From Polycladomyces zharkentensis (GTDB lineage: Bacteria; Bacillota; Bacilli; Thermoactinomycetales; JIR-001): a stretch of DNA of 64,000 nt. Positions 8,000 to 62,748 of the stretch are shown in pieces. The DNA lies in the NCBI RefSeq assembly GCF_016938855.1, contig NZ_JAFHAP010000006.1, positions 124,001 to 188,000 of the forward strand, written 5' to 3'. Each line of letters starts with the position of its first letter. Position 1 is the stretch's first letter. Below the pieces are notes generated by a model that was not told the origin of the DNA, ran no database searches, and was given only the letters and a program-made list of their open reading frames with translations. Position numbers and translations under genes: made by a program.

Positions 8000-8190
8000 C
8001 TTTCCCAGGTATCGACCATACCAAGCCCAACCGAGCGGAGAACCGGGAAAGGTGCGAGGAATCAACCACAGGCAAATTCCGCTTTAGCGAAGTGCACTTT
8101 GACCAGCGTCCTGCGTCCGGTTCGAAGCGGTCTTGTGCGGCTTCCCTGCCGGACGCAGGTGAGAAGCAGGGAAAGTGATGGACGTTATAT
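8000..8190 (+). repeat. Dispersed ~190-bp repeat, copy A (in the 7913-8300 gap)
   Basis: First of three related non-coding blocks in this window (others near 26.06-26.25 kb, same strand, and 36.14-36.33 kb, opposite strand). Shared landmarks in order: ACC..AAGCCC near 8021-8030, a GGGAAAGGTGCGAGGA stretch, GCGAAG followed by ACTTT, CTGCGTCC, then GCAGGG..GTGATGGAC. No intact frame is shared by all copies. The rest of the 390-bp gap holds nothing else recognisable. Confidence 0.65.
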
Positions 8191-8300
8191 GGATCAGATT
8201 GCTCCGTACTGTGGATGTTCAGCAGGAGACGGGAACGGAACTCGCCGGTTTTGCAACAAATGAGCCGCCTCCTTGGCGGGAGACGGCCCTTTACGATCAA

Positions 8301-9677
8301 TCAACCATGATACAAGAAATTGATGATAAATGCCGCAGTGATCAGGTACAAAAACAGATTCATTTCTTTGTATTTCCCCGTCAATGTTTTCAGCACCGTG
8401 TAGCTGACAAACCCGAAGGCCAATCCTTCCGCGATGCTGGAAGTCAACGGCATCAGGATGATGGTTAAAAACGCCGGGACCGTATCGGTGAAATCATCGA
8501 ACGAAAGGTTCTTGATCTCACTCAGCATCAGCGATCCGACCAGAATCAGTGCCGGTGCAGTGGCCACCGAGGGGATCAGCATGATCAACGGTGTCAAAAA
8601 CAGGCTCAGCAGAAACAGTCCCGCCACCACCACGGCGGTGAGGCCGGTTCGCCCGCCTTCGGAGATGCCGGCGGCATTCTCGATATAGGCGTTGAGTGCG
8701 GTGGAGCCGAACGTGGCGCTCATCATCGTACCCACGGCATCAGCTTGCAGCGCGCGGTTCAAATTGGGGATGTCGCCGTTTTTGTCCATCAGTCCCGCTT
8801 TTTTGGACAAGCCGATCAATGTGGCCAGGTTGTCAAACAGCTCCACGATCGTGAAAGAGAAAATGATGGAAAAGATTCCGTAATGGATGGCGGCCATGAT
8901 GTCCAATTTCCCAAGCGTGGTGGTGATGTCCGGCACGGTGAACGTCATCACGTCGGACAAACGGTGTGGTACCGGAGTCACGCCGAATGCCATCGCCAAC
9001 AGGGTGGTGACCAAAATGCTGATGATCATGGCCCCTTTGATGTTGCGCGCCATCAGGATGACAGCCACCAACAGACCGATCATGGTCAGAATCGGACCGG
9101 GTTTTGTCACTTGACCCAGCGTGACGAAGGTGGCAGGACTCTTTACGATGATGCCGGCGTTTTTCAGCCCGATAAATGCGATAAACAATCCGATGCCCAC
9201 CACGATGGCGGACCGAAGGACATCCGGCACGGCTGCCACCAGTCTACGGCGTATTCCGGTCACCGTCAGCAGGAAAAAGACGAGTCCGGAGATAAAGACG
9301 GCACCGAGAGCGGTCTGCCAACTCAGGCCTTGTCCGAGTACGACGCTGTAGGTGAAAAAGGCATTCAGCCCCATGCCGGGTGCGATGGCAACAGGAAAAT
9401 TGGCCCACAATCCAAACAGCAGCGTACAAAAAACACTGGCGAAAATCGTGGCGGCAATGGCTCCTTCCTTGGGAATGCCGGCGTCGGACAAAATTTGCGG
9501 GTTGACGAAAATGATATAGCACATCGTCATAAAAGTGGTGAGCCCCGCAAAAACTTCCGTTCTGACGTCGGTTTTCCGCTCGGACAATCGGAAAAATCGG
9601 TCCAAGAAGCCTTGCGTGTTTTGCGACATTTCCGTTACCGCCACGGATTGCGGCGTTTCCACTTGTGAATCGGCCAT
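8301..9677 (-). CDS. NCS2-type purine (adenine/guanine/hypoxanthine) permease, AzgA/PbuG-like
   Basis: 458 residues with about 12-14 hydrophobic segments. Family blocks are clear: TEVFAGLTTFMTMCYIIFVNP near the start, ANFPVAIAPGMGLNAFF, then FGSTALNAYIENAAGISEGGRTG and the C-terminal LTSSIAEGLAFGF. These fit the AzgA branch of proton-driven nucleobase carriers. ATG 9677 follows AAAGGAGG directly, so longer N-terminal versions are rejected. The leader carries strong inverted repeats, but I do not see the purine-riboswitch core. The gene stands alone. Confidence 0.88.
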   Translation of the reverse strand: MADSQVETPQSVAVTEMSQNTQGFLDRFFRLSERKTDVRTEVFAGLTTFMTMCYIIFVNPQILSDAGIPKEGAIAATIFASVFCTLLFGLWANFPVAIAPGMGLNAFFTYSVVLGQGLSWQTALGAVFISGLVFFLLTVTGIRRRLVAAVPDVLRSAIVVGIGLFIAFIGLKNAGIIVKSPATFVTLGQVTKPGPILTMIGLLVAVILMARNIKGAMIISILVTTLLAMAFGVTPVPHRLSDVMTFTVPDITTTLGKLDIMAAIHYGIFSIIFSFTIVELFDNLATLIGLSKKAGLMDKNGDIPNLNRALQADAVGTMMSATFGSTALNAYIENAAGISEGGRTGLTAVVVAGLFLLSLFLTPLIMLIPSVATAPALILVGSLMLSEIKNLSFDDFTDTVPAFLTIILMPLTSSIAEGLAFGFVSYTVLKTLTGKYKEMNLFLYLITAAFIINFLYHG

Positions 9678-9741
9678 GGGAAATCCTCCTTTTTGTCCAT
9701 GATGTCCAATCTCTGTCAAGTTTGTTTGCAGATCATCGAGA

Positions 9742-9776
9742 CCGCGGTTTTTCCATTCCCCCGACCGAAACCGCGG
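9742..9776 (-). promoter_or_regulatory. Inverted-repeat leader upstream of the purine permease
   Basis: CCGCGGTTT (9742-9750) and AAACCGCGG (9768-9776) form a perfect 9-bp stem in the permease leader. A second related pair, CGAAACCG and CGGTTTCG-like, lies at about 9805-9837. On the minus strand the arms share sequence, so alternative pairings are possible. Purine-riboswitch landmarks were looked for and not found. The rest of the 9678-10109 region shows only AT-rich promoter-like DNA. Confidence 0.4.
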
Positions 9777-10109
9777 CACCTTCGACAGCTTTTCAGATGG
9801 GAAATCGAAACCGCTGAGGTTGTCGACCGTTTCGGTTTTACTCTGCTATGTTACTACAAAGAACGGAAGGGAATCTACCATTTGGCGTCTGTTTGTCATG
9901 GAAAAATCACGTTTATGCCCCATATATACCCGTGTCTGCTTGCTTAAATGTAATAGATAAAAGAACGAAATGTCTAAATAAGAAATAAAATGGAGAATGA
10001 GATCCCGAGATCAGTGATCTGAAGGAATCGGTGATTCAAAAACAACGGAAATTTCGGTAAAATAGAATTGGACGGAATGGTCAGTTTAATGCTGTAGACT
10101 GCCTGATTA

Positions 10110-10127
10110 TGAATGATTATTCATTCA
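10110..10127 (+). promoter_or_regulatory. FadR operator upstream of lcfA
   Basis: TGAATGATTATTCATTCA matches the B. subtilis FadR box (TGAATGAMTANTCATTCA) at 17 of 18 positions. It lies 24 bp before the lcfA ribosome site, so FadR repression relieved by long-chain acyl-CoA is expected. Confidence 0.9.
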
Positions 10128-24359: not shown

Positions 24360-24411
24360 GCATGAAAACCTTGAAAACAACTGAATCAAAGTTTTCCTCA
24401 CTGCACACATG

Positions 24412-24600
24412 TGGAGTAGAGGTCGCGGAGCTTCAAGAGTACCTGTCGGGAGGGCCGGTCCCCGACGATCGGCAGGGAAAGGGGAGTCCGCCGAAGTTTC
24501 TCTCCTTGCCGGAAGGGGAGGAGCTGGGGTTGTCGCCGAACAGGGGCAACACTGTCACGGGAACGTATCGCGTCCCGTGGAGCACTATCTCACAGGGGAC
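24412..24600 (+). promoter_or_regulatory. Lysine riboswitch (L box)
   Basis: P1 strands GTAGAGGTCGC (from 24415) and GGAGCACTATC (from 24579) enclose L-box landmarks in order: AAGAGTA, a GGCAGGGAAAGGGG segment, GCCGAAG, GGAGCTGGGG, and ACTGTCACGGGAAC before P1 closes. The aptamer lies between a promoter and a strong terminator in front of aspartokinase, the family's standard target. Lysine binding should favour termination, giving feedback on lysine and diaminopimelate synthesis. Confidence 0.92.
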
Positions 24601-31250: not shown

Positions 31251-31392
31251 TTCTTATCCAGAGCGGCGGAGGGACTGGCCCGATGAAGCCCGGCAACCAC
31301 CCCGTTTACCGCGTGCATCCACGCACACGTCAAACGGCGGGGAATGGTGCCAATTCCTGCAGAACCGACAGGTTCTGAGAGATGAGAAGGGG
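31251..31392 (+). promoter_or_regulatory. SAM-I riboswitch (S box)
   Basis: All S-box core elements are present in order: CTTATCCAGAG, GGAGGGACTGGCCC, ATGAAGCCCGGCAACC, AATGGTGCCAATTCCTGCAG, and closing GAGAGATGAGAAGG. It lies between a promoter and the terminator ahead of metX. SAM binding should promote termination. Confidence 0.96.
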
Positions 31393-57029: not shown

Positions 57030-57179
57030 GCAGAACGTGAAACAAGTTATGGAGTGAACATCACGTATTATTTTACAAATAATGTAAATCTAGATCAAGG
57101 TACATGATTCAATTTCACCGTTACGTAAAAAATGGCTGGTCATGTAGCCAGTAGCCAATCACAAAAAGGAGTGAGAGAA

Positions 57180-57629
57180 GTGGGAGCAGTACCAAAGAAC
57201 GTGCCTGTTATTAAATATAAAAAGCCGTCTTACCGGCGTCAGGTAGAGCATTTGTTACGGGAGTACCCGGTCCTAAAAGCGGCTATTGAAAACGAACGAC
57301 AATTGGAGCGGGAGGGCCTTGGGAATCTGTTCCCCACCTGCACTCCGATGTATGAGGAGTCGGTGAGCCGTGGGCATAGCGAGTACCAATCCACCACGGA
57401 ACGATATGCCATCATCCGGGCTACCAAGATGGTCAGACTCCAACAGATTGAGCGGGCATTGTTGGTTTTGAATCTGGATGAGCGGTATTTAATCGAAAAG
57501 CGGTACATGGATCAATCTCCTGCAGACGATATGATTGTTTGTGATGAACTTGGGTGGAGTAAGCGAACCTATTACCGGATCAAAAGACGGGCATTGGATA
57601 AACTGGCTATAGCGTTGAATTTAATTTAA
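57180..57629 (+). CDS. ArpU-family late transcription regulator
   Basis: 149 residues. The C-terminal LIEKRYMDQSPADDMIVCDELGWSKRTYYRIKRRALDKLA is the sigma-like helix-turn-helix of ArpU/RinA-type phage proteins, which activate the late (packaging and structural) genes. AAGGAGTGAG precedes GTG 57180. It lies, as usual, between the replication genes and the terminase, but here the terminase is 5.5 kb away because of the intervening accessory block. Confidence 0.88.
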   Translation: MGAVPKNVPVIKYKKPSYRRQVEHLLREYPVLKAAIENERQLEREGLGNLFPTCTPMYEESVSRGHSEYQSTTERYAIIRATKMVRLQQIERALLVLNLDERYLIEKRYMDQSPADDMIVCDELGWSKRTYYRIKRRALDKLAIALNLI

Positions 57630-57877
57630 ACGGCCGGGCACTACTTCCCGTACTTAGTTAGGAAAGAAAATCGCATATCCCGCGATTAGAAAAAAACCTA
57701 AGTTGGAAAAGGAAAATCACCAATTCAAAAAATCTACTTTTACCCTAGTTAAGAAACCTAATCAGGTGTTGATTCACCGAATAGAATATAGCACAAGATA
57801 CAGGAGTTCACTTTGTTGTTGTTTCTTTGAAGAGAATACTAGTAAATCTAGTTCAAAAACGACTAGGAGGTGATATC

Positions 57878-58087
57878 ATGGAATTTTGGAATACTGATTG
57901 GAAAAAAGATGATGATCGGAAAGATCATGATCGGAAAGATCATGATAGGAAAGATCGGAGAAAAGATTTTTTCAAAAGACACGATGATGACAATGACAAC
58001 AAAAACAAAAACACCAACATTATTGACATTGAAATTGATATTGATGTCAGAAAAAAACATGATCACAGAAAGAAAAAAGACGACTAA
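57878..58087 (+). CDS. Asp/Lys/His-rich low-complexity protein (69 aa), spore-coat-like
   Basis: TAGGAGGTGATATC precedes ATG 57878. After FWNTDWKK come tandem DRKDH units (encoded by 15-bp DNA repeats at ~57909-57955), then DDDNDNKNKN, IDIEIDIDV and a KKHDHRKKKDD end. Charge-patterned repeats of this kind resemble coat proteins such as CotG or CotB tails rather than virion proteins; this is composition only. A terminator follows at 58124. A GerE-box-like AGAAACCTAATC (reverse strand GATTAGGTTTCT) is at 57752-57763. Confidence 0.7.
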   Translation: MEFWNTDWKKDDDRKDHDRKDHDRKDRRKDFFKRHDDDNDNKNKNTNIIDIEIDIDVRKKHDHRKKKDD

Positions 58088-58123
58088 GACTAATTAAGGT
58101 TTCACCAATCTCCTGTATCTAAC

Positions 58124-58147
58124 GACCGCAATTAGCGGTCTTTTTTT
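58124..58147 (+). terminator. Terminator after the Asp/Lys/His-rich gene
   Basis: GACCGC / GCGGTC stem, 5-nt loop, then seven T. Confidence 0.85.
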
Positions 58148-58162
58148 AGTAATAAAGACCGT

Positions 58163-58260
58163 TTGGCAACTTTTTGGCAACCTTATGGCACCAATTGACC
58201 GTTTTTCGGTGTTAACATGGTATTGGGGTTAGTTGCAACACCATCGCAATATGTAGGTGG
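58163..58260 (+). repeat. CACCAATTGACCG module, copy 1 (long form)
   Basis: TTTGGCAAC..., GGCACCAATTGACCGTTT, then CATCGCAATATGTAGGTG. The same blocks recur at 59859-59910 with the ~37-bp middle part (58206-58242) missing. Confidence 0.55.
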
Positions 58261-58264
58261 TTGG

Positions 58265-58398
58265 AGCGGGGACAAATCAAATTATCAACGGAGGTGAAAT
58301 CCTCCGTTACTGACGCTCATCACTTCCCCGCTTCATTCTAAAGTTCGGAGTTTCCCGGAAGAGGGTGCAACCGAGTGAACAACACCTATTACACCCTC
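58265..58398 (+). ncRNA. Structured RNA: long nested hairpin plus pseudoknot (copy 3 of the pseudoknot)
   Basis: AGCGGGGA (58265-58272) pairs with TCCCCGCT (58325-58332) around an inner hairpin AACGGAGG / CCTCCGTT (58287-58294, 58301-58308). It is followed by an H-type pseudoknot: CCCGG (58354) with CCGAG (58371, one mismatch) and loop GAGGGTG (58361-58367) with CACCCTC (58392-58398). The pseudoknot has two better copies at 58.9 and 60.8 kb. No protein frame fits. Confidence 0.5.
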
Positions 58399-58414
58399 AT
58401 TTGATTCTTTACAA

Positions 58415-58567
58415 TTACTCGTTTTGATTGTCCATGTTCTCAAAGTGGTCAGTAGGTTGGATGATTGTTCCACAGTTAGGGCATTGGATTAAGCTGTTAA
58501 GATACTGTTTTTTGTCGACTTGAAATACATTACCACATTGACAGGCTATGGTTACGATTTCGTCCAA
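58415..58567 (-). CDS. Small zinc-ribbon protein (about 50 aa)
   Basis: Two Cys pairs, ACQCGNVF and IQCPNCGTII, form a rubredoxin-like zinc knuckle. Start uncertain: TTG 58567 follows AAGGTGG at 9 nt and gives a compact domain. The frame is open to 58657, but that part overlaps the upstream gene and lacks a ribosome site. Second gene of a leftward pair. Confidence 0.6.
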   Translation of the reverse strand: MDEIVTIACQCGNVFQVDKKQYLNSLIQCPNCGTIIQPTDHFENMDNQNE

Positions 58568-58592
58568 TGGCTTCACCCACCTTACGCCTACT

Positions 58593-58763
58593 TTAGTTTT
58601 TTGTCTCTTTAAAGTCAGAAGTAGAAGATAACTGTTTGATAAAATTGATAATCCCATTTTTTGTTTGTGGATCTAGGTACTTCTCATATAAATTGATATT
58701 AACCGGAGGATAATTATGTTGCTCTTCTTTGTTGTTTGAATAACTTATTTGTTGAGCTTTCAT
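58593..58763 (-). CDS. Small polar protein (56 aa)
   Basis: TATAGGAGGACACACATT then ATG 58763: one of the best ribosome sites in the element. The product (start KAQQISYSNNKEEQHNYPP) is Asn/Gln/Lys-rich with one helix (NGIINFIKQLSS). Stop is 25 bp before the zinc-ribbon start, so the two form an operon against the phage direction. No family recognised. Confidence 0.6.
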   Translation of the reverse strand: MKAQQISYSNNKEEQHNYPPVNINLYEKYLDPQTKNGIINFIKQLSSTSDFKETKN

Positions 58764-58933
58764 AATGTGTGTCCTCCTATATAGTATAGTTAATATAAAA
58801 GTGTATAAGCGGTGTATCTAATTAGACGTGAAAATCCTTATCCCTTTTTTGGTTTTTGAACACTTTATAAATCCAGTGTAATCCAAACATATTAATAGAT
58901 TGTCATTTCTATTAGTGATTAGAAAGATTACTT

Positions 58934-59104
58934 CCCGGATGAGGGTACAACCGGGTAAACAACACCCTCCCAGGGCAACATGCCCAAAATACTACGCCGA
59001 TCCAATCTCAAATGACCCGGACTTAGGTTGATGATCTGGATTGTTGGCACAAAACCACGGAGCGACGGTGAGCCATGATTGCGGACCCATAGGGGTCTTT
59101 TTTT
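58934..59104 (+). ncRNA. Structured pseudoknot RNA, copy 1
   Basis: H-type pseudoknot: CCCGG (58934-58938) / CCGGG (58951-58955), loop GAGGGT (58941-58946) / ACCCTC (58964-58969). Then hairpin GGGC / GCCC (58973, 58982), the conserved block CAAAATACTAYGCC, an irregular stem (ATCCA / TGGAT), conserved CAAAACCAC, GTGAGCCATGATT and TGCGGACCCATAGG; GACCC / GGGTC with T7 forms a terminator. Copy 2 at 60.8 kb keeps these elements with base changes on both sides of the second pseudoknot stem (GAGAGG / CCTCTC) and the hairpin (GGGT / GCTC). No coding frame is shared. Confidence 0.6.
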
Positions 59105-59109
59105 ATTAT

Positions 59110-59171
59110 GGGTTGCATGGAGGGGTAAAGATGCCCAACGATCACAGGTTCGAATCCCGTGCAACCCACCA
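59110..59171 (+). tRNA. tRNA-like element missing one arm (62 nt)
   Basis: GGGTTGC (59110-59116) pairs perfectly with GCAACCC (59161-59167). A T-arm ACAGG-TTCGAAT-CCCGT (one mismatch) lies at 59144-59160, and ACCA follows the acceptor. Only 27 nt separate position 8 from the T-arm, too short for both D and anticodon arms, and I see no anticodon loop. So it is not a normal tRNA: a truncated tRNA, tRNA mimic or old attachment site. It starts 6 nt after the T-run of the preceding RNA. Confidence 0.5.
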
Positions 59172-59253
59172 AAAAGAAATGGCCTAAAAAGTTAATCCCC
59201 GACTATGGGCAAGGGGTTTTGCCTTTGCAATGAGGCACAAACAAAAACGAAAA

Positions 59254-59297
59254 AACCGATCGTCTGATCGGTTAATTGAAGCTTATAGAGAAGCACC
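59254..59297 (+). repeat. ACCGATC hairpin plus GAAGCACC module, copy 2
   Basis: AACCGATC / GATCGGTT perfect hairpin (59254-59273), then GAAGCTTATAGAGAAGCACC. The remaining 59172-59706 stretch is AT-rich with one doubtful small ORF. Confidence 0.5.
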
Positions 59298-59419
59298 AAG
59301 AGCTGACAAGCCGGATTTAACTCCATTTAAAAAAGCTAAGGAACCTCTTACATATATTCCATATCGGTTGGATTTTTTTCCAAAAACCCATTATCGATTG
59401 AATCGCCTTGGGCATGGGA

Positions 59420-59590
59420 ATGAAATTCAACAATTGTGCCATTAAACCGCTGATATTAATTCCTCTCAAAGTAGGCAAAGAAGTGGTGGACATTTTTTTA
59501 AAAATCCCCCTTTCGTTTTCTGAGGATAAGTTATTCCGATGTTCTATTTGTGGAAGGGCAATAGTTTACAGTCATATGTGCATTTTTTGA
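59420..59590 (+). CDS. Doubtful small ORF with Cys motifs (56 aa)
   Basis: ATG 59420 (or 59414) opens a frame ending FRCSICGRAIVYSHMCIF, a possible zinc knuckle. The ribosome site is poor (GGGCATGGGA). It could be a remnant of a larger gene. Low confidence. Confidence 0.3.
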   Translation: MKFNNCAIKPLILIPLKVGKEVVDIFLKIPLSFSEDKLFRCSICGRAIVYSHMCIF

Positions 59591-59706
59591 AAAGGTAAAT
59601 ATCCTAAACATAATTATGTACTTGACTATTTAAAAATAATGACATTAGCGGTTTCCTAAAGAAAAGAAGATGAATAATGTGTTTTGGAGGAAAGGAGGGA
59701 GATGGG

Positions 59707-59820
59707 ATGAGCTTTGGTTTCGGTGGTGGTTTTAGTAGTATTGGGCTGCGTCGTCTTTTGATTTTCCTGCTGGTCATCGCTACGATCTTTGTCTTTGCTG
59801 GAGTTGGATTTGGTTACTAG
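59707..59820 (+). CDS. YjcZ-like small sporulation-type membrane protein (37 aa)
   Basis: GGAAAGGAGGGAGATGGG precedes ATG 59707. Gly/Phe-rich start (SFGFGGGFSSIGLRR), then one hydrophobic helix (LLIFLLVIATIFVFAGVGF) ending GY. This is the build of YjcZ/YuaG-type small proteins made in sporulating Bacillales. Assignment rests on composition and size. It lies among other spore-like cargo genes of the prophage. Confidence 0.7.
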   Translation: MSFGFGGGFSSIGLRRLLIFLLVIATIFVFAGVGFGY

Positions 59821-59858
59821 GGTGTGTCTTACAAATTAGGAGCACATAATGGCCCTAT

Positions 59859-59940
59859 TTGGCCAACTTTGTGACACCAATTGACCGTTTCATCGCAGTA
59901 TGTAGGTGTTAGTATGAAAACCGATCATCCGATCGGTTTT
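59859..59940 (+). repeat. CACCAATTGACCG module copy 2 fused to ACCGATC hairpin copy 3
   Basis: GACACCAATTGACCGTTTCATCGCAGTATGTAGGTG (59872-59907, read as two blocks) matches 58187-58257 minus its middle. It is followed by AAAACCGATC / GATCGGTTTT (59917-59940), a perfect 10-bp terminator-like hairpin with T-run, and then GGAAGCACCGGG at 59972-59983. Confidence 0.55.
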
Positions 59941-60004
59941 TCAAATAGCCCTGAGGCGAAATAGGAAGCACCGGGATAGTTCATCCAAATAGGTTAGACA
60001 CGTT

Positions 60005-60118
60005 ACCATGACAATGCTGGATTAACCGTTAAGAGGGAGGCCACACATCAGTGTGGCCTCTACCTCAATAAGGTGCTCAATCAAGGTATGGTGGGGATAA
60101 CCTGGCTTGTGCATTATA
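60005..60118 (+). repeat. CACAC-hairpin module, copy 2
   Basis: CATGACAATG, perfect hairpin GAGGCCACAC / GTGTGGCCTC (60037-60060), CCTCAATAAGGTG, AGGT...GGGGATAACCT, GTGCATTATAAT; same order as 56766-56903. Confidence 0.6.
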
Positions 60119-60213
60119 ATTGTTTTCTAATCGTTTTGCAAAGCTGTACAGAGTAAACATTTGATTCAGATTATAGGGATAATTGGGTAACAGTTTCACA
60201 ACGTAGCTGTTGA

Positions 60214-60471
60214 TCAGGAACTACTATCCCTCCAATAAGAACTGCTAGAGGAACTATCCCAATGTGCGCTGTCCCAGTAATGGCGATGATGATGCTTTAG
60301 CATGTGTTTCAAAATCTTGCTGGCTTTTTTACAATGTCGATGCGCTTTGCGCAATTTGTGGTAATCCATCATTGTGTGATCCGGATAATCAAACATCGGA
60401 TACATAGGAGACATTGGGTCCGTAGGCATTGGATACATAGGAATTGGCATTGGAGGTATTACGTGTTCCAT
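60214..60471 (-). CDS. Met/Pro/Tyr- and His-rich small protein (85 aa), spore-coat-like
   Basis: AAAAGGAGTGG precedes ATG 60471. Layout: MEHVIPPMPIPMYPMPTDP (Met-Pro repeats), a Lys/His-rich middle (KASKILKHMLKHHHRH) and a WDSSSSSSYWRDSSS end. Tyr/Met/Pro/His-rich compositions are typical of coat or crust proteins that become cross-linked; no phage structural family fits. Upstream is a sigma-K-type -10 and a GerE-like box. Orientation opposes the phage operons. Confidence 0.7.
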   Translation of the reverse strand: MEHVIPPMPIPMYPMPTDPMSPMYPMFDYPDHTMMDYHKLRKAHRHCKKASKILKHMLKHHHRHYWDSAHWDSSSSSSYWRDSSS

Positions 60472-60504
60472 AAAATCCACTCCTTTTAAGCCGGTTAGCA
60501 ATGA

Positions 60505-60552
60505 TATCGTATGACCGTCTATCCGCATTGGAACTAGGTTATTTGCCTAAAT
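60505..60552 (-). promoter_or_regulatory. Candidate sigma-K promoter with GerE-like box
   Basis: On the minus strand CATACGATA (60505-60513) matches the sigma-K -10 CATAnnnTA; the -35 AC is not clear. ATTTAGGCAAAT (60541-60552) matches the GerE site RWWTRGGYNNYY at 11 of 12 positions and lies just upstream of where -35 would be. Confidence 0.4.
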
Positions 60553-60791
60553 TTCGTGTCTTAACGAAATTTTGGAGTCACCATTATTAATCAGGGAATA
60601 ATATGCTGACAAATTGGTCTGGAGGTTATTCACATGGGTTATTTGTTCTACTGATGTTATTTCCCAAGACCTCCTTGGTTATTGGTGGTATATGTTTTAA
60701 GGAAATCCTGTAGGACCGGTCGTGGTTGTCGTAACCTCAAGGACTCCAACGGCTTCCATATACCGATAAGGTGATTCTATGCAAATCACCG

Positions 60792-60979
60792 CCCGGATGA
60801 GAGGAAAACCGGGTAAACAACCCTCTCCCAGGGTCACAGGCTCAAAATACTATGCCAATTTCTCTGATAACGACCAAGTGCCATCGAGTTTCTCCTCGAA
60901 TGACGGTGATTGAGGATGTACTCAAAACCACAAGACGTGAGCCATGATTTCATGATTTGCGGACCCATAGGAGTTTTTT
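60792..60979 (+). ncRNA. Structured pseudoknot RNA, copy 2
   Basis: CCCGG (60792-60796) / CCGGG (60809-60813) with loop GAGAGG (60799-60804) / CCTCTC (60822-60827); hairpin GGGT / GCTC (60831, 60840); CAAAATACTATGCC; a longer middle with CGAG / CTCG hairpin (~60884-60898); CAAAACCAC; GTGAGCCATGATT (60937-60949); TGCGGACCCATAGG (60958-60971) and a T-run. The final hairpin is weaker than in copy 1 although its sequence is kept, implying that GCGGACCCATAGG matters for more than termination. Confidence 0.6.
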
Positions 60980-61046
60980 TATTGCCAGTGACCTAAAATT
61001 TGTCACCCTAAAGCAGTAAGGGATATGTGTTATTGGACGTTTTCTT

Positions 61047-61074
61047 TTGACAAATGAATGAAAAAAGCTATTAA
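61047..61074 (+). promoter_or_regulatory. Promoter of the GNAT-PUA / ASCH pair
   Basis: TTGACA (61047-61052), 16-bp spacer, TATTAA (61069-61074), ~105 bp before the gene. Confidence 0.6.
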
Positions 61075-61180
61075 ATACATTTACACGAACAAGAGTTCGG
61101 ACTATAATAAAACCATCACCTATGTTCAGGTACAGGAAAATAAATACTTCCCACGAATATTAAAGTGGGAGGTGTTTTTT

Positions 61181-62642: not shown

Positions 62643-62705
62643 GCAGTTTGCAATCTTTTATAACAAAAACATCTCACACAGGATCTTTTTCTTTTGACGA
62701 CATAG

Positions 62706-62736
62706 AAAACCGGTGGGGTTGAAACCTACCGGTTTT
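62706..62736 (+). terminator. Terminator after the ASCH gene
   Basis: AAAACCGGT / ACCGGTTTT stem (62706-62714, 62728-62736) followed by CTTTC; separates the accessory block from the packaging genes. Confidence 0.75.
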
Positions 62737-62748
62737 CTTTCATTCTTA

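What the first reader, a model, noticed from the sequence alone, without database searches (positions are those of the whole stretch)
58265..58398. Third, diverged pseudoknot attached to a long nested hairpin
The same CCCGG / GAGGGTG / CCGAG / CACCCTC order recurs at 58354-58398, but the second strand is further away and the downstream conserved blocks are absent. A 68-nt nested hairpin (AGCGGGGA...TCCCCGCT with inner AACGGAGG/CCTCCGTT) precedes it. The pseudoknot may be a movable module used in different RNA contexts.
Basis: seen in the sequence. Interest (0 to 1): 0.6.

Follow-up and report, generated by a model that had tools for sequence, protein, structure and literature searches.

The report
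Split leader RNA of prophage late-genes
The hairpin and pseudoknot are the front half of a longer structured RNA that starts at a prophage's late-gene promoter; a small gene pair lying between its two halves has cut it in two, and the complete RNA, ending in a terminator and a tRNA-like fold, exists in related prophages and matches no known RNA family as a whole.

Summary
The nested hairpin (58265-58332) and pseudoknot (58354-58398) are real. They are not a separate module: they are the 5' half of a roughly 600-bp element (promoter included), found whole in an IMG/VR phage contig and nearly whole in related prophages. Its order is ArpU-type late promoter, nested hairpin, small hairpin, pseudoknot, hairpin, conserved body, intrinsic terminator, tRNA-like fold. 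In the window two antisense genes (58415-58763) lie between the 5' half and a second pseudoknot plus the 3' half (58934-59171). A second element (59858-60980) is likewise split by an antisense gene.

Evidence: compensatory changes in pseudoknot stem 2 and in the hairpin across loci; 7 G-U to 0 A-C pairs in the nested hairpin, which points to plus-strand RNA; the same promoter directly after the ArpU gene in two other families. A Rfam RNA (DUF3800-VIII) sits inside the leader in one relative, above its cutoff.

Most likely it acts in cis on late transcription, because a terminator follows the late promoter in every context examined; that step is inferred. Rivals: a free late non-coding RNA, or a decaying remnant. 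Only one genus, one locus in another family and one phage contig carry it.

The parts
57132..57629 (+). ArpU-family late regulator gene (TIGR01637), the presumed activator of the late promoter
   Evidence: NCBIfam phage_arpU 52.2 bits over cutoff 43.1; PHROG transcriptional activator
58162..58223 (+). Late promoter: three 11-bp tandem repeats (58162 TTTGGCAAC, 58173 TTTGGCAAC, 58184 TATGGCACC), then TTGACC (58195-58200), 17 nt, TGGTAT (58218-58223)
   Evidence: Sequence; repeats; same motif directly after the ArpU stop codon in G035 and G027
58242..58259 (+). Conserved 5' end of the leader, CATCGCAATATGTAGGTG
   Evidence: Ten places in the window and oriented loci, mostly at a similar distance from the promoter
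58265..58332 (+). Nested hairpin of the finding (outer AGCGGGGA/TCCCCGCT, inner AACGGAGG/CCTCCGTT)
   Evidence: Fold z -5.5; nine sequences compared; 7 G-U, 0 A-C pairs
58342..58359 (+). Truncated remnant of the small hairpin GGTTCGGAGTTAGTCCGAAC (hp2), running into pseudoknot stem 1
   Evidence: Intact in L037, G002:C17, G000:C21 and G001
58354..58398 (+). Pseudoknot copy A of the finding; distal 3' strand CACCCTC at 58392-58398
   Evidence: covariation count
58415..58763 (-). Two overlapping small genes (zinc-ribbon protein; 56-aa protein) between the two halves of the leader
   Evidence: ORFs; same pair between pseudoknot copies in G001, G002, G009; weak Zn_ribbon_CSL match
58934..59082 (+). 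Pseudoknot copy B, hairpin GGGCAACATGCCC and conserved leader body
59083..59106 (+). Intrinsic terminator GGACCCATAGGGGTCTTTTTTT
   Evidence: conserved in the relatives
59109..59171 (+). tRNA-like fold without a D arm or a regular anticodon arm, ends in ACCA
   Evidence: ARAGORN finds no tRNA
59858..59908 (+). Second, damaged promoter and leader 5' end (minus-10 region lost)
60214..60528 (-). Antisense gene (His/Met/Pro-rich product) splitting the second leader copy
   Evidence: ORF; no family match
60785..60980 (+). Second 3' half: pseudoknot (diverged copy), body, weaker terminator; no tRNA-like fold

Best explanation
The finding is the 5' half of a structured leader RNA transcribed from the ArpU-activated late promoter of an otherwise intact-looking prophage. 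The complete leader runs promoter, nested hairpin, small hairpin, pseudoknot, hairpin, body, intrinsic terminator, tRNA-like fold, late region. In this prophage a two-gene antisense cassette sits between the 5' half and a second pseudoknot plus the 3' half. SHOWN by comparison: the anatomy, the duplication, the position between the ArpU gene and the packaging genes, and the conserved stems. INFERRED: ArpU activates the promoter through the repeats. INFERRED, about 0.35 on its own: the leader works in cis like the lambda pR'-leader-tR' segment or a put/EAR-type antiterminator, so that polymerase stops at the terminator unless the folded leader (or a factor bound to it) lets it pass into the late genes. 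The tRNA-like fold would then be an RNase P-type processing point on read-through RNA. In the copy of the finding, with the pseudoknot detached from body and terminator and stem 1 imperfect, this control is probably weakened or lost.
For: Complete copy in phage contig L037 downstream of ArpU, near-complete copies in G002:C17 and G000:C16. The promoter motif directly follows the ArpU gene in two other families and precedes a small terminase gene in a further contig; in a scan of 399 genomes of the class 8 sites match, 6 of them of this kind. A published Ltr-type late regulator needs direct repeats upstream of its promoter, and Ltr genes lie just upstream of the promoter they control (PMC13123087). 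Pseudoknot stem 2: 12 two-sided changed cells against 4.7 in shuffles; 92.5% of cells paired against at most 60% for slid pairings. Nested hairpin: 7 G-U, 0 A-C pairs. T arm of the tRNA-like fold: compensatory A-U to U-A change. An intrinsic terminator or a strong hairpin with a T-rich tail follows the late promoter in this genus, in G035 (two loci) and in G027.
Against: No transcription data. No antitermination factor identified. In G000:C16 and G035 a second regulator gene stands further downstream, so late genes may use another promoter there. Stem 2 covariation rests on two linked pairs that could be one or two events; the number of covarying pairs is not above shuffles. Several copies are degenerate. 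Terminators after the promoter could simply end early transcripts.
Confidence: 0.5

Rival explanations
1. A free-standing late non-coding RNA that ends at the terminator and acts in trans, in the manner of GOLLD or ROOL (large phage RNAs often near tRNAs), with the tRNA-like fold as a neighbouring relic of a tRNA.
For: Own promoter and own terminator in the complete copies, several ordered domains, tRNA-like neighbour. ROOL and GOLLD are phage-encoded, often near tRNAs, and GOLLD rises during lysis (PMC12286853).
Against: No Rfam match to GOLLD or ROOL in the window or in L037. The position directly after the late promoter fits a leader as well. About 460 nt of RNA in L037, smaller than GOLLD.
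Confidence: 0.28
2. A decaying remnant: the leader was duplicated and broken by inserted genes, and the hairpin-pseudoknot of the finding no longer does anything beyond, on the minus strand, helping to end the zinc-ribbon transcript.
For: Copy A lacks body, terminator and an intact hp2. In a related locus the minus-strand inner hairpin is followed by a T run that looks like a terminator of the zinc-ribbon gene (G002:C51, GCGAAGGTATTTACCTTCGCTTTTTT). Several copies are clearly degenerate.
Against: Promoter and nested hairpin of copy A are intact. G-U pairs outnumber A-C pairs 7 to 0 on the plus strand, which argues that plus-strand RNA was selected. The hairpin-pseudoknot pair persists at several diverged loci.
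Confidence: 0.22
3. A DNA-level feature: a packaging (cos) site or a recombination linker that recurs because phages exchange genes at it.
For: Antisense genes repeatedly lie between copies. phi105 has the same slot, with HicAB between ArpU and HNH and cos a little further on.
Against: Stem changes are compensatory and include G-U pairs, and there is a promoter and a T-tailed terminator; all fit RNA better.
Confidence: 0.1

Closest known systems
Phage lambda pR'-6S leader-tR' segment (own knowledge; Q antitermination)
   Same: Late promoter, leader, intrinsic terminator before the late genes
   Different: Here activation looks ArpU/Ltr-type, the leader is longer and has a pseudoknot and a tRNA-like fold; no Q-like factor was identified
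put RNA (HK022) and EAR RNA (Bacillus eps operon), RNA-based processive antiterminators (own knowledge)
   Same: Structured leader RNA upstream of terminators; EAR also holds a pseudoknot
   Different: No Rfam match of that kind; activity not tested
GOLLD and ROOL phage RNAs (PMC12286853)
   Same: Large structured RNA in prophages, near tRNA-like sequence
   Different: Different sequence, no Rfam match, and it follows an ArpU-type late promoter
DUF3800-VIII RNA (Rfam RF03075)
   Same: Present as a domain inside the leader in G001 (43.2 bits, cutoff 40.2) and weakly in L037
   Different: Absent from the window copies; elsewhere it stands alone, twice next to a gene that looks like DUF3800
Ltr/RinA/ArpU late promoters (PMC13123087)
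   Same: Regulator gene just upstream, direct repeats before the promoter
   Different: Repeat is TTTGGCAAC with 11-bp period; a long structured leader follows

Membership tests
Ltr/ArpU-type late promoter | Regulator gene of the ArpU family upstream | tested here: met
   TIGR01637 over cutoff; 57132-57629
Ltr/ArpU-type late promoter | Direct repeats before the promoter | tested here: met
   Three 11-bp-spaced repeats 58162-58192; same motif after ArpU in G035 and G027
Ltr/ArpU-type late promoter | Activation by the regulator | not testable with these tools
   Needs a reporter assay
RNA-based antiterminator (put, EAR) | Sequence/structure match to a known family | tested here: not met
   No Rfam match at E 1 in 57800-61100; none of that kind in L037
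RNA-based antiterminator (put, EAR) | Read-through of downstream terminators | not testable with these tools
   Terminators present but read-through not measured
GOLLD / ROOL | Covariance model match | tested here: not met
DUF3800-VIII RNA | Covariance model match over cutoff | tested here: inconclusive
   Met in relative G001 (43.2 bits), below cutoff in L037 (29.3), no match in the window
tRNA / tmRNA | Complete cloverleaf or tmRNA call | tested here: not met
   ARAGORN finds none; acceptor and T arm conserved, D arm and a 7-base anticodon loop lacking

The most novel reading that the evidence does not exclude
A new class of phage late-leader RNA in which a pseudoknot domain controls polymerase passage through a built-in terminator, and a tRNA-like fold without D and anticodon arms serves as a processing or protection element, in an ArpU-type Gram-positive phage.
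Probability: 0.25. Interest if true: 0.75.

Novelty: new variant of a known kind. Interest (0 to 1): 0.48.

Why it matters
RNA-based processive antitermination is known from very few systems, and none that I know of is tied to ArpU/Ltr-type late promoters of Gram-positive phages. The regular pairing of late promoter and terminator seen here would make that testable. The element also combines a pseudoknot, a terminator and a tRNA-like fold, contains a Rfam RNA of unknown role in one relative, and marks a slot where phages accumulate antisense cargo genes.

Tried and rejected
Type III toxin-antitoxin RNA: no tandem short pseudoknot repeats and no toxin neighbour; judged from anatomy only. Group I/II intron or riboswitch: no Rfam match at E 1. 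Complete tRNA: ARAGORN negative. Integron-like attC sites: the element has promoter, terminator and a plus-strand G-U bias instead. Exact-pattern scans of genome contigs and searches of phage and plasmid records found nothing; near relatives of the window genome may be left out of those collections. Three further viral scans only returned L037 again. The hp2 pattern at 1-2 mismatches gives hits at about the level of the reversed control, so only the exact ones are used. The G069 and G105 promoter-pattern hits look like chance. The automatic alignment of the nested hairpin's outer stem was poor, so helices for the G-U count were delimited by hand; the pseudoknot stems alone give no strand signal (stem 1: 2 G-U, 2 A-C; stem 2: 0 and 1). 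No structure or literature search gave a described homologue of the whole leader.

Full report
Observation. The order pattern occurs only twice in the window and nowhere else in the genome, none being expected by chance; a diverged copy lies at 60785. The region folds far better than shuffles (z -4.25; hairpin alone z -5.5). In this copy the distal strand CACCCTC is preceded by a truncated strand CACC five bases before it, and stem 1 has one C.A mismatch.

The larger element. Searches of relatives found copies in two genomes of the same genus and a reduced one in another family. IMG/VR contig L037 holds the whole thing downstream of an ArpU gene: promoter repeats, the 5' end CATCGCAATATGTAGGTG, nested hairpin, a linker, hairpin GGTTCGGAGTTAGTCCGAAC, pseudoknot, hairpin GGGCCACAGGCCC, conserved body, terminator GGACCCATAGGGGTC plus a T run, and a fold with tRNA acceptor and T arms ending in CCA. 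Dissection by module shows that the window holds two such elements, each split. The first has its 5' half at 58162-58398 and its 3' half, beginning with a second pseudoknot, at 58934-59171, with two antisense genes between them. The second runs from a damaged promoter at 59858 to 60980, with an antisense gene at 60214-60528 between.

Place in the prophage. DnaB-like helicase, RusA and ArpU precede it; HNH, large terminase, portal-like and capsid-like genes follow (portal and capsid judged by position and sequence only). In G000:C16 a complete element also lies between ArpU and an HNH gene. In G002:C12 the element and the zinc-ribbon genes remain next to the same M24-type peptidase gene that flanks the window's prophage, with only a scrap of the DnaB gene left.

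Promoter. The 5' motif, three TTGGCA repeats of 11-bp period followed by TTGACC-17-TGGTAT, stands directly behind the ArpU stop codon in G035 and G027, two other families, and before a small terminase gene in another G035 contig. Published Ltr regulators sit just upstream of the promoter they control and need direct repeats in it (PMC13123087). I infer an ArpU-dependent late promoter.

Structure. Pseudoknot: on 15 sequences stem 2 switches between GAGGGTG/CACCCTC and GAGAGGG/CCCTCTC; 12 cells change on both sides against 4.7 in shuffles, and 92.5% of cells pair against at most 60% for slid pairings, but the number of covarying pairs (2) is not above shuffles, so few events may be involved. G002:C51 adds a stem 1 change CCTGG/CCAGG, although its stem 2 partner is not seen. 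Nested hairpin: outer and inner stems are kept with quite different letters in G009, G002:C51 and G000:C17, with 7 G-U and no A-C pairs on the plus strand (hand-delimited helices). The tRNA-like fold shows compensatory changes in the T arm and the middle stem, though weakly against shuffles.

Known RNA families. The window region has no Rfam match. In G001 the linker between nested hairpin and hp2 is a DUF3800-VIII RNA above its cutoff, and in L037 a weaker one. That family occurs alone elsewhere, twice beside a gene that looks like DUF3800. The window copies lack this stretch.

How it may work. In every late-promoter context examined an intrinsic terminator, or a strong hairpin with a T-rich tail, follows the promoter: the leader's own terminator in this genus and in L037, and others in G035 and G027 (the first G035 one was missed by the scan because of a bulge but folds at -19.1 kcal/mol). 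This layout resembles lambda pR'-tR' and suggests that polymerase passage is controlled. I give that step about 0.35. A trans-acting RNA of the GOLLD/ROOL kind, or a remnant, are serious rivals.

The zinc-ribbon neighbour. The gene pair has paralogs outside prophages in all three genomes of the genus, near an MFS-type transporter gene; in two of them, and in G009, the hairpin-pseudoknot lies convergently behind the gene. So the pair travels with the gene as well as with the late leader; which was first is not settled.

Verdict. Observation confirmed; interpretation partly supported. The element is a new structured phage leader of narrow distribution; its mechanism is inferred, not shown.

Noticed in passing
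window 59109-59171; L037 1802-1865 (-); L059 1502-1565: tRNA-like fold with acceptor and T arm and encoded CCA but no D arm or regular anticodon arm; at L059 it stands without the leader, between an ArpU remnant and a papain-type protease gene.
   Followed up: partly
L029 12293-12357 (-); L109, L110, L112: DUF3800-VIII RNA inside a prophage leader, and alone in intergenic regions of three other genomes, twice next to a gene that looks like DUF3800.
   Followed up: partly
window 58415-58763; L076, L077, L078, L079: Zinc-ribbon plus 55-56-aa gene pair, with paralogs outside prophages beside an MFS-type transporter gene in three genomes; function unknown.
   Followed up: partly
window 57827-58087, 59708-59821, 60214-60528; L037 reverse complement 9553-10125: Small genes with a sporulation or coat-protein look (YjcZ-like, Asp/His/Lys-rich, GerP-like; my own reading, no family match) clustered between ArpU and the packaging genes: a cargo slot.
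   Followed up: no
L036 9790-9898 (window coordinate about 97790): Lone terminator plus tRNA-like remnant far beyond the prophage, about 4 kb past an intact-looking large serine recombinase gene.
   Followed up: no
L032 reverse complement 8087-8711; L106 7768-8277: Second late-regulator-like gene downstream of the element, in C16 followed by another copy of the leader 5' end and a shortened nested hairpin before HNH.
   Followed up: partly
window 62704-62738: Strong inverted repeat with T-rich tail inside the presumed late operon, just before the HNH open frame.
   Followed up: no
window 24409-24595 and 31251-31388: Lysine and SAM riboswitches over their Rfam cutoffs; ordinary host features.
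   Followed up: no
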